Shown piece by piece: positions 7,569-34,683 of a DNA stretch of 36,724 nucleotides. How positions within the stretch are numbered: the first letter of the stretch is position 1; each line of letters opens with the position of its first letter. The notes under the pieces are model-generated. The model did not search any database. It was not told the origin of the DNA and was given only the letters and a program-made list of their open reading frames with translations. A program made the position numbers and the translations under genes. The DNA lies in contig JAJYIM010000021.1 in the NCBI GenBank assembly GCA_021790115.1, forward strand, positions 1 to 36,724, given 5' to 3'. The stretch is from Actinomycetes bacterium (GTDB lineage Bacteria > Actinomycetota > Thermoleophilia > BMS3ABIN01).

Positions 7569-7576
7569 CGAAATTC

Positions 7577-7745
7577 ATAAATGCCAGGGGCCAATAGTTT
7601 GACGATTGGCTTAAACGGGGCAAGCCCGGTGAAAGTCCGGCGCAGTCCCGCTACTGTGAGTGCGTTTTGGCAACCTGTGCCGCCATTTCGTGCGAGCCAG
7701 AAAACCCGCCCTGACTATCAGAGACTCTGATAACCTTCGAGAGAA
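7577..7745 (+). ncRNA. Cobalamin riboswitch
   Basis: The conserved core is easily read: TTAAACGGG, then the CCGGTGAAAGTCCGG element and CAGTCCCGCTACTGTG, and the B12 box GAGCCAGAAAACCCGCC at about 7694-7710. An 8-bp hairpin (TATCAGAG/CTCTGATA) follows. Between the aptamer and the gene lie a run of seven T (7799-7805) and a GC hairpin (CGCCC/GGGCG) just ahead of the AAGGA ribosome site, so control could act on termination or translation start. High cobalamin should switch the downstream cobalt uptake gene off. The outer boundaries are approximate. Confidence 0.9.
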
Positions 7746-23838: not shown

Positions 23839-25056
23839 CTAATATCCGCGATCCAAGGTCCGTTTTTTTGCCCAGACCTGGAGCGGCAGGCCGTAAAGCT
23901 CGCAAAAGCCCCGGGCGGCGCCGTGGCTGAACGCGTCCTGGCCGCCGTATGTGGCCAGCCCGTAATCATACAGCGAATAGGAGGACTTGCGCCCGCTGAC
24001 CCTGCAGGCGCCCTTGAAAAACTGCAGCCGGACAGAGCCGGTCACCCGCTGTTGCGTTTCTTCCATAAACGCTCTGAGGGCGTCCATCAGCGGATCAAAC
24101 CAGCCGCCGTTGTAGGCCATGTCCGTGAACTTTTGCTCCGCCAGCCTCTTGAAGTGGGAGAGCTCGCGCGGCAGGACCAGGTCTTCCAGCTCCCGGTGCG
24201 CCATGATCAACGCCAGGGCGCCGGGCGCCTCGTAAACCTCGCGGGACTTGATGCCGACAAGGCGGTTTTCCACCATGTCAATGCGGCCGAAACCATGTTT
24301 TCCCCCGGTTTTATCAATTTCATTCAGTAAATCAACCAGCGGCATCTCTTCACCGCCGGCAGCCACCGGCTCGCCGGACACGAACTCGATTTCCATCGTT
24401 GCCGCCTGATCCGGAGCCGCGGTGGGGGAGACGGTGACTGCAAAAGCATCCTCGGGCGGATCCTGCCACGGGTCTTCCAGAGGGCCACATTCGATCGCCC
24501 GGCCCCAAAGGTTTTCGTCAATGCTGTAAGGAGCCCCGCTGGTCGAAGCAACGGGAATATTGTGGGCGGCTGCGTAGCCGACAGCTTCCTCCCTAGTCAT
24601 GCCCCATTCCCGCGCCGGCGCCAGAATTTCCAGCGAGGGATCCAGGGCGCGCAGGCCCAGCTCGAAACGGACCTGGTCGTTGCCCTTGGCGGTGCAGCCA
24701 TGCGCCACTGCGCCGGCGCCAGACTTATGGGCGACTTGCACCAGCAGCTTGCAGATAAGCGGCCGCGACAGGGCGCTGACGAGCGGATATTTTTCTTCAT
24801 AGAGCGCGTTTGCCATTAGCGCCGGCAGCACAAAATCATGGGCAAAATCTTCTTTTGCGTCAACAACTATCGCCTCGGCGGCGCCGATGGCGAGCGCCTT
24901 CTTCCGGAGTTTCTCCAGGCCGGCGGCGCGGCCGGCATCGACAAGGACGGTGATTGTCTCCAGGCCGTATTTTTCTTTCAGCCAAGCAATCATCACCGAG
25001 GTATCAAGCCCGCCCGAGTAAGCAAGAACCACTTTTTTATTTTTAACTTTGTTCAT
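23839..25056 (-). CDS. argG: Argininosuccinate synthase
   Basis: Joins citrulline and aspartate with ATP to form argininosuccinate. 405 residues. The ATP-binding P-loop is LAYSGGLDTSV at about residues 11-21. Also visible are AHGCTAKGNDQVRFE, APAREWGMTREEAVGYA, and the NRLVGIKSREVYEAPGA region. It lies between argR and argH in the operon. Confidence 0.97.
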   Translation of the reverse strand: MNKVKNKKVVLAYSGGLDTSVMIAWLKEKYGLETITVLVDAGRAAGLEKLRKKALAIGAAEAIVVDAKEDFAHDFVLPALMANALYEEKYPLVSALSRPLICKLLVQVAHKSGAGAVAHGCTAKGNDQVRFELGLRALDPSLEILAPAREWGMTREEAVGYAAAHNIPVASTSGAPYSIDENLWGRAIECGPLEDPWQDPPEDAFAVTVSPTAAPDQAATMEIEFVSGEPVAAGGEEMPLVDLLNEIDKTGGKHGFGRIDMVENRLVGIKSREVYEAPGALALIMAHRELEDLVLPRELSHFKRLAEQKFTDMAYNGGWFDPLMDALRAFMEETQQRVTGSVRLQFFKGACRVSGRKSSYSLYDYGLATYGGQDAFSHGAARGFCELYGLPLQVWAKKRTLDRGY

Positions 25057-28645: not shown

Positions 28646-29899
28646 TCAGGAAGTATACTCCGCATTCAGTGTCACATAATCATGCGTCAGGTCGGAGAAA
28701 TAAACCGTTTGCGCCGACGATCCCCGGTGCAAAACCATCGCCACCGAGATTTCCGCCTGCGACATGATCTGCGCCAGCCGCTTCTGATTGATTGATTCTG
28801 CCACGGCTTCTCCTGCACGCGCCAGGCAGGTATCTTCATAAAAAATATCCGCCTTAAGCTCCGGGGCGCCCGCCAGGGCGGCTCCGGCAGAGGCCATGAT
28901 CCGGCCCCAGTTTGCGTCGCCGCCATAAAACGCCGTCCTGACAAGCGGCGAGCCGGCCACCGAGCGGGCAACCCGGTCCGCCTCCTCCTGCGAGGCGGCG
29001 CCTGTTACCCGGAACTCTACTAATTTGCTTGCTCCTTCCCCGTCCGCCACCATTTTCAGCGCCAGGCTCTTGCAGACCGCTGCTACTGCTTCGGCGAACA
29101 GCGCGGCGTCACGGCTGTCCTGTCTCAACTGGACGCCGCTTTCGCCGTTTGCCAGCAGAAAGACGCAATCGTTCGTGCTCATGTCCCCGTCGACGCTGAT
29201 GCTGTTAAATGACGAAGCAGCCGCCCGGCCGAGAACCTCCTTGAGCAGCTCCGGCGCGGCGCCGGCGTCCGTTGTCATAAATGCCAGCATCGTGGCCATG
29301 TTTGGCGCAATCATGCCCGCGCCTTTGGCGCAAGCGCCGATGCGCACTTCCCCGGCGGGAAGCTTCACCGCCACTGCCCCTTGCTTATCAAGCCGGTCCG
29401 TGGTTTTGATCGCCTCGGCAAATGCCGCCCCGCCACTTTCTGACAACGCCGCCGCCGCCGTGGCAATGCCGCTGCTTACCAGGTTCATGTCCAGCTGCAT
29501 GCCGATAACGCCGGTGGAAGCCACCGCCATGCCGGCGGGCGGGAGGCCGCAAAGACCGGCAGCCTGGCTGGTCATCTCCCCGGCTGCGTCCAGACCGCGG
29601 CCGCCAGTGCAGGCATTGGCCGTGCCGCTGTTGGCCACTATGCCCTGGATGGCGCCGGATTGGGCTTTCTGGCGGCAAATCCGGATTGGCGCCGCCGCCG
29701 CTGCATTAGGCGTATAAAGCTCGGCCGACGCGCAGGGAGCTTTGGAAACCAGCAGCCCCAAATCCGGCTTGCCTGTTCTCTTCAGCCCGCATGATACGCC
29801 GGCGGCCATAAACCCGGAGGGGGCCGTCAACGAGCCCGGCTGCTCTGTTATGTGGCCGGGCATTTTTACAAACCTTGAGCCAAATAAATTCTTCGCCAT
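28646..29899 (-). CDS. argJ: Bifunctional ornithine acetyltransferase / N-acetylglutamate synthase
   Basis: Recycles the acetyl group from acetylornithine to glutamate. 417 residues from ATG 29899 (GTG at 29902 also fits AAGGA upstream). The self-cleavage site is in KGAGMIAPNMATMLAFMTTDA (cut between Ala and the nucleophilic Thr). IVANSGTANACTG, DGDMSTNDCV and GGDANWGRI are present, and the C-terminus ends TLNAEYTS as usual. It follows the small selenoprotein candidate by 14-17 bp. argC, which normally precedes argJ, is absent. Confidence 0.96.
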   Translation of the reverse strand: MAKNLFGSRFVKMPGHITEQPGSLTAPSGFMAAGVSCGLKRTGKPDLGLLVSKAPCASAELYTPNAAAAAPIRICRQKAQSGAIQGIVANSGTANACTGGRGLDAAGEMTSQAAGLCGLPPAGMAVASTGVIGMQLDMNLVSSGIATAAAALSESGGAAFAEAIKTTDRLDKQGAVAVKLPAGEVRIGACAKGAGMIAPNMATMLAFMTTDAGAAPELLKEVLGRAAASSFNSISVDGDMSTNDCVFLLANGESGVQLRQDSRDAALFAEAVAAVCKSLALKMVADGEGASKLVEFRVTGAASQEEADRVARSVAGSPLVRTAFYGGDANWGRIMASAGAALAGAPELKADIFYEDTCLARAGEAVAESINQKRLAQIMSQAEISVAMVLHRGSSAQTVYFSDLTHDYVTLNAEYTS

Positions 29900-29916
29900 C
29901 ACGAGTAATCCTTAAT

Positions 29917-30240
29917 TCAACCGGATGCATGCTGTGCGGCGCGGATTGCCTTCACCAGCAAGTCAACAGGTGGTGCATTAACAAGCCGCCCGGACTTGTC
30001 GGTATACATGCGTCAGGTGATGCCCGGCGCTCCCCCCTCGCCAATATCGTTGCCGTTAATCCGCACTGTGGGCGAGCCCTGCAAACCAAGCTTGAGCGCC
30101 CTTGGTTCATTAACCTCAAGGTAGGCAACGTTGGCGGCTGCGCCTGTTTGCGCCAGGGCCATCCCGATATTTTCCTTAAGCTGCTTTAGCGAAGCACAGC
30201 CGGGGGAGACAAAAACTTCAATTTTTAAAGGTGCGCTCAT
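29917..30240 (-). CDS. Small thioredoxin-fold protein, candidate selenoprotein (UGA = Sec76), first gene of arg operon
   Basis: 107 codons if UGA 76 is read through. From ATG 30240: strand IEVFVSPGC (Cys15), then VAYLEVNEP and the cis-Pro motif GSPTVRINGNDI (about 56-66). A UGA at 30013-30015 follows, and then RMYTDKSGRLVNAPPVDLLVKAIRAA to a TGA stop at 29917. Relatives of this small thioredoxin-like family carry a conserved Cys in C-R-x-Y at this point, so UGA stands for that Cys. An 8-bp SECIS-like stem follows at the right distance. The gene has a leaderless promoter and is 14 bp from argJ. Ordinary calling would stop at 30013. Function unknown; Cys15/Sec76 suggest redox or metal/thiol chemistry. 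Confidence 0.8.
29980..30000 (-). promoter_or_regulatory. SECIS-like hairpin for UGA at 30013-30015
   Basis: On the minus strand ACAAGTC-CGGGC-GGCTTGT: a 7-bp stem, one pair being G-U, extendable by a further G-U pair, with a 5-nt loop having G at its second position. The apical loop starts 20 nt after the UGA, inside the known bacterial SECIS window. Confidence 0.7.
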
Positions 30241-30247
30241 GAGATAA

Positions 30248-30320
30248 TTTATACAACATGAATGCATTAATTGCAAATTAAATGCAAAAAATATATTTAA
30301 TGCATTTTTATTGAATAATT
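30248..30320 (-). promoter_or_regulatory. arg operon promoter with ARG-box-like operators (leaderless start)
   Basis: TTGCAA (30271-30276), 17 bp, TATAAA (30248-30253); the ATG at 30240 is 7 bp past the -10, so the message is probably leaderless. ARG-box-like A+T-rich palindromic sequences cover and precede it: TGCATTAATTGCA on the plus strand at about 30263-30275, and on the minus strand AATAAAAATGCA at about 30301-30314, which matches the core of the Bacillus ARG box. ArgR from this operon is the likely ligand. Confidence 0.65.
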
Positions 30321-30557: not shown

Positions 30558-30604
30558 ATTGCTTTCTAATTCATGGCCGAACTTGATTGCGGGATGTTGA
30601 TACG

Positions 30605-31639
30605 ATGCGGGATGTTGAAGTGAGCTTCGAAGAAACAGCAATGAAGTCAGATGATGTGGTCTCACGGGCGCCCGGTGAGAAAAAGCCCAAGTTATTGGAG
30701 CAGATGCGGACGGCTTTGCGTGCCCGTCATTACAGCAGGAAGACCGAACAGAGCTACTGCCAGTGGGTCAGGCGGTTCATTCATTTCCACGGCCTTCGGC
30801 ACCCGGCTGAAATGGCTGAACCGGAGGTCAATGAATTCCTGACTTACCTGGCAATTGACAGGAAGGTCAGCGCTTCCACGCAGAACCAGGCGCTTTGTGC
30901 GCTCCTCTTTCTGTATCGCCATGTTCTGGGCCGCGAGCTCGGGCATCTCGGCGACGTGATCCGCGCCAGAAAACCCAAGCGCTTGCCTGTCGTTATGACG
31001 CGCGATGAGGTGAAGGTGGTTTTGCAGAACTTGTCCGGCGACAAGTGGCTGGTGGCTTCTCTCCTGTACGGCGCCGGTCTTCGTCTCATGGAATCATTAC
31101 GGCTGCGGATCCAGGATATTGATTTCGACCGAAATGAGATAATGGTTCGGGACGGCAAGGGCGCCAAGGATCGAATTACGATGCTGCCCGGGTCACTGAA
31201 ATCGCCGTTGCGTGACCACTTGCGGAAGGTCAAGGAAATACATCAACAGGACCTTGCCGAAGGCTGGGGCCGCGTTCAAATGCCGATGGCTCTTGACCGT
31301 AAGTATCCTAATGCCCCCGTGGACTGGCGCTGGCAATGGGTATTTCCGCAGGAACATCGCTGGAAGAATCACAGGACCGGTGAACAGGGCCGCCATCACA
31401 TAGATGAATCGCTGGTTCAAAAAGCCGTAAGCAGGGCGGTGACAAGCTCTGGATTCACCAAGCGAGCCACTTGTCACACATTCCGTCACTCGTTTGCGAC
31501 ACATCTGCTTGAGGGTGGCTATGATATCCGCACGGTGCAGGAGCTTCTGGGCCACAAGGATGTAAAGACGACAATGATTTATACGCATGTCCTCAACCGC
31601 GGGCCCGCCGGAGTCCGCAGTCCAATCGATGGACTTTGA
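30605..31639 (+). CDS. intI: Integron integrase (IntI-type tyrosine recombinase)
   Basis: A site-specific recombinase that inserts and excises gene cassettes at attI/attC. About 344 residues from ATG 30605; ATG 30641 gives 332, the usual IntI length, and a TTG at 30587 lies in an 18-bp tandem repeat. The N-terminal SAM-like domain is [22 protein letters not shown]. Catalytic motifs are [13 protein letters not shown] (Arg I), [27 protein letters not shown] (Tyr). The IntI-specific extra segment [21 protein letters not shown] separates it from XerC/D. The C-terminus [14 protein letters not shown] is typical. It is transcribed in the same direction as the cassettes. Confidence 0.95.
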
Positions 31640-31802
31640 TACAGCTGGGGATTATTATTAGGGTCCGGATAACACGCAAAGGCAAGTTTCTTCTGGATGA
31701 AGAGAAGCATGATTGCAGGGCAGTCATGTCATGAAGCCAAGTTACATTATATGGACTCGTTAGACCAGACAGCGTGTTATCTGGAACTGTATAAACATTG
31801 TT
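31619..31802 (+). repeat. 184-bp direct repeat copy 1, candidate attI site
   Basis: It starts 21 bp before the integrase stop and ends at GTT of a GTTGGGC core (31800-31806), matching the GTTRRRY cassette-insertion consensus. A near-identical copy lies at 34500-34683. It contains GCAGGGCAGTC followed by AAGTTA, resembling from memory the attI1 end of class 1 integrons, and a second core-like GTTAGAC. A 13-bp near-perfect inverted repeat (CCGGATAACACGC versus GCGTGTTATCTGG) is about 95 bp apart. Position next to intI and the core motif make it the attI site. Confidence 0.75.
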
Positions 31803-33316: not shown

Positions 33317-34501
33317 ATGATTAAGCGTAGACTTCTATCAACCCTGAAACAGCGGCTTCAGGAAGTACCGGCCGTGGTATTGCTGGGTCCGCGTCAGGTG
33401 GGTAAGACCACGCTGGCGCTGGCGGTTGCTGAGCAGGAGGATGCGGTTTACCTGGATCTGGAGTCCGAACAGGACCGCGCCAAGCTGGCCGAACCCGAGC
33501 TGTATCTTGCCGATCACCTGGGCCGGCTGGTGATCCTGGATGAGGTCCATCGTGCCCCAGGTCTCTTTCCCGTGCTGCGCGGCATGATCGACCGTTCCCG
33601 CAGGGCCGGGAAACGGCATGGCCAGTACCTGCTGCTGGGTTCGGCGTCTCTGGATCTGCTCAAACAGTCCGGAGAGACGCTGGCCGGGCGTGTCAGCTAT
33701 CTTGAGCTTTCTCCTTTCGATGTCCTCGAGGTGGGGGAAGAGGGAGCTGGGGCGTCACGTGACCGGCTGTGGCTGCGCGGCGGATTTCCCGAGAGCCTGC
33801 TCGCGCCCGGCGAGCCCCAGAGCCTTCGCTGGCGGCAGGATTTTATCCGCACCTACCTGGAGCGGGACATCCCCCAGTTTGGGCCGCGTATAGCGGCCGA
33901 GACGCTGCGCCGTTTCTGGGCCATGCTTGCCCACAATCAGGGTGGGCAGCTGAATATCGCCCAGCTGGCCCGCAACCTGGGGGTCGATGCCAAGACCGCC
34001 GCCTCTTACATCGATCTTCTCACCGACCTGCTTCTGGTGCGCAGGCTTCCATCCTGGCGCGCAAACGTTGGCAAGCGGCTGGTAAAGTCGCCCAGGGTGT
34101 ATGTGCGCGACAGTGGCTTGGTCCACGCCCTGCTGGCCGTCGGCGACATGGAGACGCTGCTTTCACACCCGGTGCTGGGGGCAAGCTGGGAAGGTTATGT
34201 AATTGAGAATCTGTTTGCTGTTGCGCCTGATGGCGCAGAGGGGCATTTCTACCGGGCCAGCGGCGGCACCGAGATCGACCTTCTGCTTGGTTTCCCCGAT
34301 GAGAGCATGTGGGCGATCGAGATCAAACGCAGCCTCTCGCCGCGCCCTGAGCGCGGGTTTCATTCAGCGTGCTCTGATTTAAAGCCAGCGCGCAAGTTCG
34401 TGGTTTACCCCGGCGCCGAAACGTACCCCCTTAGCAACGATGTTCAGGCCATCCCGCTTTCCGGACTTGCCGGGCTTCTTACTGCTGAAGATTTTTCGTA
34501 G
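33317..34501 (+). CDS. AAA+ ATPase with DUF4143 domain
   Basis: 394 residues. The N-terminal AAA_14 P-loop domain has Walker A GPRQVGKTTLAL (about 24-35), Walker B LVILDEVHRA, and a sensor LLLGSASLDLLKQ. The C-terminal DUF4143 domain has LRGGFPESLL, WRQDFIRTYLERDIPQ, LARNLGVDAKTAASYIDLL and a nuclease-like end GGTEIDLLL ... WAIEIKRS. Widespread in bacteria and archaea, often mobile; function unsettled. No spaced ribosome site, so initiation may be leaderless. Its stop lies at the start of the second 184-bp repeat. Confidence 0.92.
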   Translation: MIKRRLLSTLKQRLQEVPAVVLLGPRQVGKTTLALAVAEQEDAVYLDLESEQDRAKLAEPELYLADHLGRLVILDEVHRAPGLFPVLRGMIDRSRRAGKRHGQYLLLGSASLDLLKQSGETLAGRVSYLELSPFDVLEVGEEGAGASRDRLWLRGGFPESLLAPGEPQSLRWRQDFIRTYLERDIPQFGPRIAAETLRRFWAMLAHNQGGQLNIAQLARNLGVDAKTAASYIDLLTDLLLVRRLPSWRANVGKRLVKSPRVYVRDSGLVHALLAVGDMETLLSHPVLGASWEGYVIENLFAVAPDGAEGHFYRASGGTEIDLLLGFPDESMWAIEIKRSLSPRPERGFHSACSDLKPARKFVVYPGAETYPLSNDVQAIPLSGLAGLLTAEDFS

Positions 34502-34683
34502 TCCAATCGATGGACTTTGATACAGCTGGGGATTATTATTAGGGTCCGGATAACACGCAAAGGCAAGTTTCTTCTGGATGAAGAGAAGCATGATTGCGGG
34601 GCAGTCATGTCATGAAGCCAAGTTACATTATATGGATTTGTTAGACCGGACAGCGTGTTATCTGGAACTGTATAAACATTGTT
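34500..34683 (+). repeat. 184-bp direct repeat copy 2, second attI-like site
   Basis: Same length as the copy at 31619-31802 with only a handful of substitutions (for example in the stretch before GTTAGACC). Identity ends exactly at GTT, where the downstream sequence changes from GGGC to AGCC. Because IntI cuts between G and TT of the core, this break is expected if different cassettes were joined to identical attI sites. Confidence 0.85.

What the first reader, a model, noticed from the sequence alone, without database searches (positions are those of the whole stretch)
29917..30240. Second UGA-for-Cys gene: small thioredoxin-fold protein heading the arginine operon
Seen: UGA at 30013-30015 lies in frame, with coding-like sequence on both sides (GSPTVRINGND before, RMYTDKSG ... 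LLVKAIRAA after) and a 7-8 bp stem with a CGGGC loop starting 20 nt after the UGA. Known: relatives of this small thioredoxin-like family have a conserved Cys followed by R-x-Y there. Inference: UGA is Sec76, probably partnering Cys15. Its place as first gene of an arg operon, in the usual argC position, is unexplained and may be new.
Basis: partly seen in the sequence, partly recalled or inferred. Interest (0 to 1): 0.9.

Follow-up and report, generated by a model that had tools for sequence, protein, structure and literature searches.

The report
Selenocysteine thioredoxin in vacated argC slot
A small redox protein that uses selenium sits as first gene of an arginine operon, in the place where the gene argC was lost, and the lost enzyme appears to have been replaced by a copy of a proline enzyme carrying the same two changes that laboratory evolution selected for this job.

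Summary
On the minus strand, 30240-29917 encodes a 107-residue thioredoxin-fold protein with an in-frame UGA at codon 76. All eight homologues in the window's family (uncultured Thermoleophilia, Actinomycetota) have UGA there; class relatives have Cys-Arg. A SECIS-type hairpin with compensatory changes follows in all eight, and selA, selB, selC and selD are in the genome. Sec76 partnering Cys15 is supported by a reciprocal case: in another family of the phylum UGA replaces the Cys15 equivalent while the second Cys stays Cys. The protein resembles NCBIfam's 'DF family (seleno)protein' but scores below its cut-off: a divergent variant.

The arg-operon position is explained by gene loss: G001 has pheS-pheT-X-argJ-B-D-F-R-G-H, the actinobacterial argC slot, and none of 19 family genomes yields an ArgC above cut-off, while ArgJ and ArgB persist. 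Nearly all carry a second, standalone ProA with Ala at E. coli Glu383 and Leu at Phe372, the two changes of lab-evolved 'ProA**' that replaces ArgC in E. coli; canonical ProA keeps Glu/Phe. I infer natural replacement of ArgC by a ProA paralogue. The selenoprotein's role is probably thiol redox or metal(loid) chemistry: five family copies lie beside mer or ars-type genes.

The parts
29917..30240 (-). selenoprotein gene: 107-residue thioredoxin-fold protein, Cys15 and Sec76
30013..30015 (-). in-frame UGA read as selenocysteine (residue 76)
   Evidence: TGA in 8/8 family homologues, Cys in class relatives
30196..30198 (-). codon of Cys15, presumed redox partner of Sec76
   Evidence: invariant in the family; UGA at this column in four genomes of another family of the phylum
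29980..30000 (-). SECIS hairpin: 8-bp stem, 5-nt loop CGGGC at 29992-29988
30241..30255 (-). TGTATAAATTATCTC, resembling the TGTATAAATATTCTA element found upstream of argJ across the family (possible arg promoter/ArgR site)
   Evidence: by-eye comparison of upstream sequences; inference only; not listed by the promoter scan
28646..29902 (-). argJ; begins about 14 nt after the selenogene stop
   Evidence: NF003802, 442 bits
27687..28634 (-). argB
   Evidence: TIGR00761, 243 bits
26444..27817 (-). argD (the ORF as listed is probably too long at its 5' end)
   Evidence: TIGR00707, 461 bits
25529..26443 (-). argF
   Evidence: TIGR00658, 385 bits
25081..25542 (-). argR
   Evidence: TIGR01529, 126.5 bits, just under its cut-off; Pfam Arg_repressor and Arg_repressor_C over cut-off
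23839..25056 (-). argG
   Evidence: NF001770, 558 bits
22345..23766 (-). argH
   Evidence: TIGR00838, 539 bits

Best explanation
29917-30240 (minus strand) is a genuine selenoprotein gene. SelB, Sec-tRNA and the SECIS hairpin directly after codon 76 decode UGA as selenocysteine, giving a 107-residue thioredoxin-fold protein in which Cys15 (the place of the first Cys of a thioredoxin CxxC) and Sec76 (end of the strand after the cis-Pro loop) form a selenylsulfide redox pair. It is a divergent relative of NCBIfam's DF family (seleno)proteins in which the other cysteine of the pair has been changed to Sec. It stands as first gene of the arginine operon because argC was lost from the pheST-argCJBDFRGH operon in this lineage and the gene occupies the gap between the arg promoter region and argJ. 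The ArgC reaction itself is probably done by a second ProA (G000:C30:27423-28676) that carries Ala383 and Leu372 (E. coli numbering). Shown by sequence: UGA/Cys column, SECIS conservation, Sec genes, slot, absence of argC, second ProA with these residues. Inferred: redox pairing, co-transcription, enzyme activities, physiological substrate (most likely a thiol or metal(loid) reduction partner).
For: UGA in 8/8 family homologues at 38-66% identity, Cys in class relatives. Six-bp core of the hairpin paired in 8/8 with changes on both sides at two pairs, invariant GG in the loop, 20-nt spacing, meeting the published bSECIS limits. selA, selB, selC together on contig 60 and selD on contig 30; selA in all 18 family genomes searched. 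dN/dS well under 1 on both sides of the UGA. Reciprocal Sec at the Cys15 column in G181, G236, G275, G304, with Cys at column 76. AF2 model pLDDT 88, pTM 0.79; best PDB matches are thioredoxins. Slot: pheT-X-argJ in G001 and a 36-codon remnant between pheT and argJ in G003. No ArgC above cut-off in 19 genomes, and the ArgC-like hits scanned are Asd. Second ProA with L372/A383 in 16/16 family sequences, F372/E383 in 18/18 canonical ProA of the family; 17/17 other-family ProA keep E383.
Against: No protein data. The hairpin of the single window sequence is no more stable than shuffles, and shuffles of the alignment reach the covariation score in 28 of 500. The window's own upstream neighbour is an integron integrase, not pheT, so the slot is inferred from G001 and G003. 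The TGTATAAA element is a by-eye comparison. The redox pair is not shown in three dimensions, since no coordinates were at hand.
Confidence: 0.88

Rival explanations
1. The UGA is an ordinary stop and the gene is a truncated 75-residue thioredoxin or a decaying pseudogene.
For: G003 holds a real remnant of the gene in the same slot, so decay does happen; some Trx-like proteins need only the first Cys (own knowledge).
Against: Same UGA in 8 homologues, selection on the downstream part, conserved hairpin, Sec genes.
Confidence: 0.03
2. The selenoprotein serves arginine synthesis itself, for instance by keeping a catalytic cysteine of the pathway (such as that of the ProA paralogue) reduced or by coupling the pathway to redox state.
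For: First gene of the operon in two species, a short way before argJ; both it and the ProA paralogue depend on a reactive Cys or Sec (inference).
Against: In the other family genomes the gene lies elsewhere or is missing while the arg operon stays.
Confidence: 0.12
3. It is a mercury/arsenic or organometal stress protein that has landed by chance in an expressed gap.
For: Family copies lie beside MerA (G005, G017), ArsR/ArsD/ArsA (G007) and a DsrE, MduS/ArsM-DUF2284-like seleno cluster (G005, G009); plasmid relatives are annotated alkylmercury lyase family or merB.
Against: No mer or ars gene was seen beside it in the window or in G001; neighbourhood is indirect evidence. This reading is compatible with the best explanation and is my favoured guess at the ancestral role.
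Confidence: 0.45
4. The selenoprotein replaces ArgC enzymatically, as its position suggests.
For: It occupies the argC slot in a genome without argC.
Against: No dehydrogenase domain, 107 residues, thioredoxin fold; most family genomes without argC do not have it in this slot; the ProA paralogue is a far better candidate.
Confidence: 0.01

Closest known systems
DF family (seleno)protein, NCBIfam NF049942
   Same: Full-length alignment, thioredoxin fold, the two conserved Cys/Sec columns, GSPT motif, C/U-R-x-Y/F motif; selenoprotein members exist
   Different: Scores 54 bits against a cut-off of 70 (other members of the clade 40-49); Sec is at the second cysteine, whereas the above-cut-off Sec members seen here have it at the first
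Pfam Thioredoxin_3 (PF13192) and the MJ0307 / MTH895-ArsE thioredoxins
   Same: N-terminal thioredoxin half matches (25.2 bits, cut-off 24.8); best solved relatives 1nho, 1fo5, 1ilo
   Different: No CxxC: CASL in place of it; the second redox residue lies 61 residues further on
Thioredoxin-like selenoproteins Sec.1 (CxU) and Sec.2 (UxC) listed under pfam13192 in a review (PMC9312934)
   Same: Same Pfam domain, Sec in a thioredoxin fold
   Different: There Sec and Cys are two residues apart in one motif; here they are 61 residues apart
E. coli ProA* and ProA** (E383A; E383A F372L), laboratory-evolved substitutes for ArgC (PMC4271523, PMC6941894)
   Same: The family's second ProA has Ala383 and Leu372 and stands in genomes without argC
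   Different: Natural, fixed across a family, beside an intact canonical ProA; activity untested
Actinobacterial pheST-argCJBDFRGH operon (order from own knowledge)
   Same: Gene order the same from pheS to argH in G001
   Different: argC missing, selenogene in its place

Membership tests
Bacterial selenoprotein gene | UGA column is Cys (or UGA) in homologues | tested here: met
   8/8 UGA in the family, Cys in class relatives
Bacterial selenoprotein gene | bSECIS: 4-16 bp stem, 3-9 nt loop with G in its first two positions, 16-37 nt after UGA | tested here: met
   8 bp, 5 nt, CGGGC, 20 nt; core conserved in 8/8
Bacterial selenoprotein gene | selA, selB, selC, selD in the genome | tested here: met
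Bacterial selenoprotein gene | Selenium found in the protein | not testable with these tools
   needs mass spectrometry or 75Se labelling
DF family (seleno)protein NF049942 | Score over the curated cut-off of 70 bits | tested here: not met
   54.3 bits; clade members 39.8-49.2; Cys and Sec members of other families 106-112
DF family (seleno)protein NF049942 | Both conserved Cys/Sec columns and full-length alignment | tested here: met
Thioredoxin_3 PF13192 | Gathering score | tested here: met
   25.2 against 24.8, marginal
Thioredoxin (classical) | CxxC active site | tested here: not met
   C15-A-S-L18 in the window, no second Cys there in any family homologue
Selenocysteine-assisted organometal (Sao) proteins | Match to an NCBIfam Sao model and Sao neighbours | tested here: not met
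   no Sao model among hits at E <= 0.01; neighbours in the window are arg genes
ArgC | Semialdehyde dehydrogenase NAD domain PF01118 | tested here: not met
   not among Pfam hits of the protein
Neo-ArgC ProA (ProA**-like), the family's second ProA | ProA family score over cut-off | tested here: met
   428.9 bits against 317
Neo-ArgC ProA (ProA**-like), the family's second ProA | Ala (or Gly) at Glu383 and Leu at Phe372 with catalytic Cys kept | tested here: met
   L/A in 14/14; invariant Cys in RPSTCN; further records
Neo-ArgC ProA (ProA**-like), the family's second ProA | N-acetylglutamyl-phosphate reductase activity, complementation of an argC deletion | not testable with these tools
   needs enzyme assay and complementation in laboratory E. 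coli

The most novel reading that the evidence does not exclude
In an uncultured family of Thermoleophilia, ArgC was lost for good and replaced by a ProA paralogue that carries the same two substitutions (E383A and F372L) that laboratory evolution of E. coli selected for this task; the vacated argC slot of the operon was then taken by a selenoprotein of the DF thioredoxin kind in which Sec sits at the opposite cysteine of the redox pair from the known Sec members.
Probability: 0.72. Interest if true: 0.85.

Novelty: new variant of a known kind. Interest (0 to 1): 0.72.

Why it matters
Two clades that changed opposite partners of one Cys-Cys redox pair to Sec give a natural test of what Sec buys at the attacking or the resolving position. 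More important, if the second ProA is the ArgC of these bacteria, a well-known laboratory model of enzyme evolution (ProA to ArgC through E383A, then F372L) has a natural counterpart fixed across a bacterial family, which would make predictions about promiscuity, order of mutations and trade-offs directly testable on natural enzymes.

Tried and rejected
First genome-contig scan with the selenoprotein found no close relative. Literature search for 'DF family' selenoproteins: none in the library; none of the papers listed for ProA/ArgC was, by title and abstract, about a natural ProA acting as ArgC. In-frame TGA counts in several distant relatives (L024, L026, L027, L029, L040, and G258, G288, G479) proved to be ordinary 3' stops, not Sec codons. 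The weak ArgC hits of the family, the three scanned, are aspartate-semialdehyde dehydrogenases. Considered and rejected: the selenogene as an integron cassette (only about 14 nt lie between it and argJ, and the attC-like repeats lie on the other side of the integrase). L372 alone is weak evidence: it also occurs in a verrucomicrobial ProA that keeps Glu383; it is A383 that sets the paralogue apart. Read-through of two other UGA sites in the window (671 and 4469, minus strand) gave no family match spanning the UGA.

Full report
Observation. The gene lies on the minus strand, ATG 30240 to stop 29917, with an in-frame UGA as codon 76; read through, it gives MSAPLKIEVFVSPGCASLKQLKENIGMALAQTGAAANVAYLEVNEPRALKLGLQGSPTVRINGNDIGEGGAPGITURMYTDKSGRLVNAPPVDLLVKAIRAAQHASG. 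Best family matches are NCBIfam NF049942 'DF family (seleno)protein' (E 1e-14, 54.3 bits, cut-off 70) and Pfam Thioredoxin_3 (25.2 bits, cut-off 24.8). The AF2 model has pLDDT 88 and pTM 0.79 with a thioredoxin-like order of strands and helices; the best PDB matches are mostly thioredoxins, at TM about 0.5, and by sequence 1nho, 1fo5 and 1ilo.

Is UGA selenocysteine? Among 149 relatives searched, 50 have a homologue. In the window's own family (f1) all eight full-length homologues, at 38-66% identity to the window's, have TGA exactly at this column; the homologues outside f1 that I read across the column have Cys followed by Arg, a hydrophobic or small residue and Tyr or Phe (one locus, L033, was misaligned because a wrong start was taken, but its matched stretch reads KCRLY). 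Between the window and its same-genus orthologue in G001, dN/dS is about 0.18 before and 0.29 after the UGA, while the other frames downstream show no such bias. Downstream hairpin: aligned without gaps in all eight, core of six pairs formed in 8/8, two pairs with changes on both sides, loop with invariant GG. [quoted passage not shown] The single window sequence folds no better than shuffles, and alignment shuffles reach the observed covariation in 28 of 500, so the hairpin alone would be moderate evidence. Sec genes: tRNA-Sec (ARAGORN, anticodon TCA), selB and selA side by side on contig 60, selD (itself with one in-frame TGA) on contig 30. selA is in all 18 f1 genomes searched; of 21 Cys-form genomes of the class, four have selA over its cut-off.

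Which residue is the partner? Cys15 is invariant and no CxxC exists. A profile search of 397 genomes of the phylum turned up another family (f27: G181, G236, G275, G304) in which the protein has UGA at the column of Cys15 (F-x-G-U-P) and an ordinary Cys at the column of Sec76. Three of the four have selA over cut-off (none was found in G236). The two clades thus changed opposite members of the same pair to Sec. The simplest reading is a Cys15/Sec76 selenylsulfide; in the fold Cys15 precedes helix 1 and residue 76 ends the strand after the cis-Pro (GSPT) loop, which in thioredoxin lies next to the active site (own knowledge; not measured on coordinates). The f27 proteins scanned score 106-112 bits against NF049942, as do class Cys forms, whereas the f1 clade scores 40-54, below the cut-off of 70.

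Why in the arg operon? Downstream lie argJ, argB, argD, argF, argR, argG, argH. In G001 the order is pheS, pheT, selenogene, argJ, argB, argD, argF, argR, argG, argH (pheT confirmed, pheS from its sequence by eye), which from general knowledge is the actinobacterial pheST-argCJBDFRGH order with argC gone. In G003 only about the first 36 codons of the gene remain between pheT and argJ. In G002, G005, G006, G007, G009, G013 and G015 nothing convincing of it was found in the gap. The window has lost pheT upstream, where an integron integrase now lies. TGTATAAA-like elements recur upstream of argJ across the family and lie upstream of the selenogene in the window and G001; I take this as the arg promoter and operator, by eye only. 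Elsewhere in f1, copies of the gene lie beside mercury(II) reductase (G005, G017), ArsR, ArsD and ArsA (G007; ArsD confirmed by model, the other two by eye), and a DsrE, MduS-like methyltransferase and DUF2284 cluster (G005, G009).

argC is missing from the family. TIGR01850 gives no hit over its cut-off in 19 f1 genomes although all 14 control genomes ring; the three hits scanned are aspartate-semialdehyde dehydrogenases at 465-470 bits against asd_B. PF01118, which covers ArgC-like enzymes, gives one strong hit in nearly every f1 genome and two in class relatives G019, G021, G024 and G026; G009 has an extra broken pair of hits on contig 21 that I did not resolve. ArgJ is over its cut-off in 17 of 19.

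What replaces ArgC? The f1 genomes carry two ProA, both recovered at or near full length in all but G012, G014, G015 and G017. ProA1 follows proB and neighbours nadD; ProA2 stands alone (gene names there by eye). Aligned to E. coli ProA (fetched), ProA1 keeps Phe372 and Glu383 in 18/18; ProA2 has Leu and Ala in 14/14, and in two further f1 sequences and the named family records fetched from genome contigs. All 17 other-family ProA of the class keep Glu383. Ala or Gly at 383 appeared in every one of 34 selected ProA genes that gained enough N-acetylglutamyl-phosphate reductase activity (PMC4271523), and F372L is the one improving change found in ProA* during evolution of an argC-deleted E. coli (PMC6941894). 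ProA2 is one clade (support 100/100) apart from ProA1 and from the other ProA of the class, so it is an old paralogue or an acquisition, not a recent copy; its sister in the tree, a verrucomicrobial ProA with Leu372 and Glu383, may be placed there by long branches. None of the papers my searches listed was, by title and abstract, about a natural case. Inference: ProA2 is the ArgC of this family.

Organism.

Verdict. The UGA-for-Sec reading is right and well supported; the gene is a divergent variant of a known selenoprotein kind with Sec at the other cysteine. The argC position is explained by loss of argC and probably does not mean a role in the ArgC step. The most valuable outcome is the likely natural ProA-to-ArgC replacement.

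Noticed in passing
G000:C30:27423-28676 (L146:1424-2677): Second, standalone ProA with Ala at Glu383 and Leu at Phe372 (E. coli numbering) in a genome without argC; same in all family members examined. Candidate natural counterpart of laboratory ProA**.
   Followed up: yes
window 30587-31639 (+), repeats 31616-31802 and 34497-34683: Integron integrase (TIGR02249, 486 bits) followed by two 187-nt repeats, 97% alike, containing an inverted repeat CCGGATAACACGC...GCGTGTTATCTGG and a GTTAGAC box, attC-like; between them ORFs including an AAA_14/DUF4143 ATPase. Cassettes appear to lie on the 3' side of the integrase and on the same strand.
   Followed up: partly
G181, G236, G275, G304 (L210-L213): DF-family proteins with UGA at the first cysteine (F-x-G-U-P) and Cys at the second: reciprocal Sec placement. 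G236 showed no selA hit in this search.
   Followed up: partly
G005:C41 (L049), G009:C55 (L052): Cluster of a DsrE protein (seen in L052), the Sec thioredoxin, and an MduS-like methyltransferase and DUF2284 protein related to double selenoproteins MduS/MbdU.
   Followed up: no
G000:C30:32412-33341 (L013): selD with one in-frame TGA, itself apparently a selenoprotein.
   Followed up: no
window 7569-7728 (+): Cobalamin riboswitch (53 bits, Rfam RF00174).
   Followed up: no
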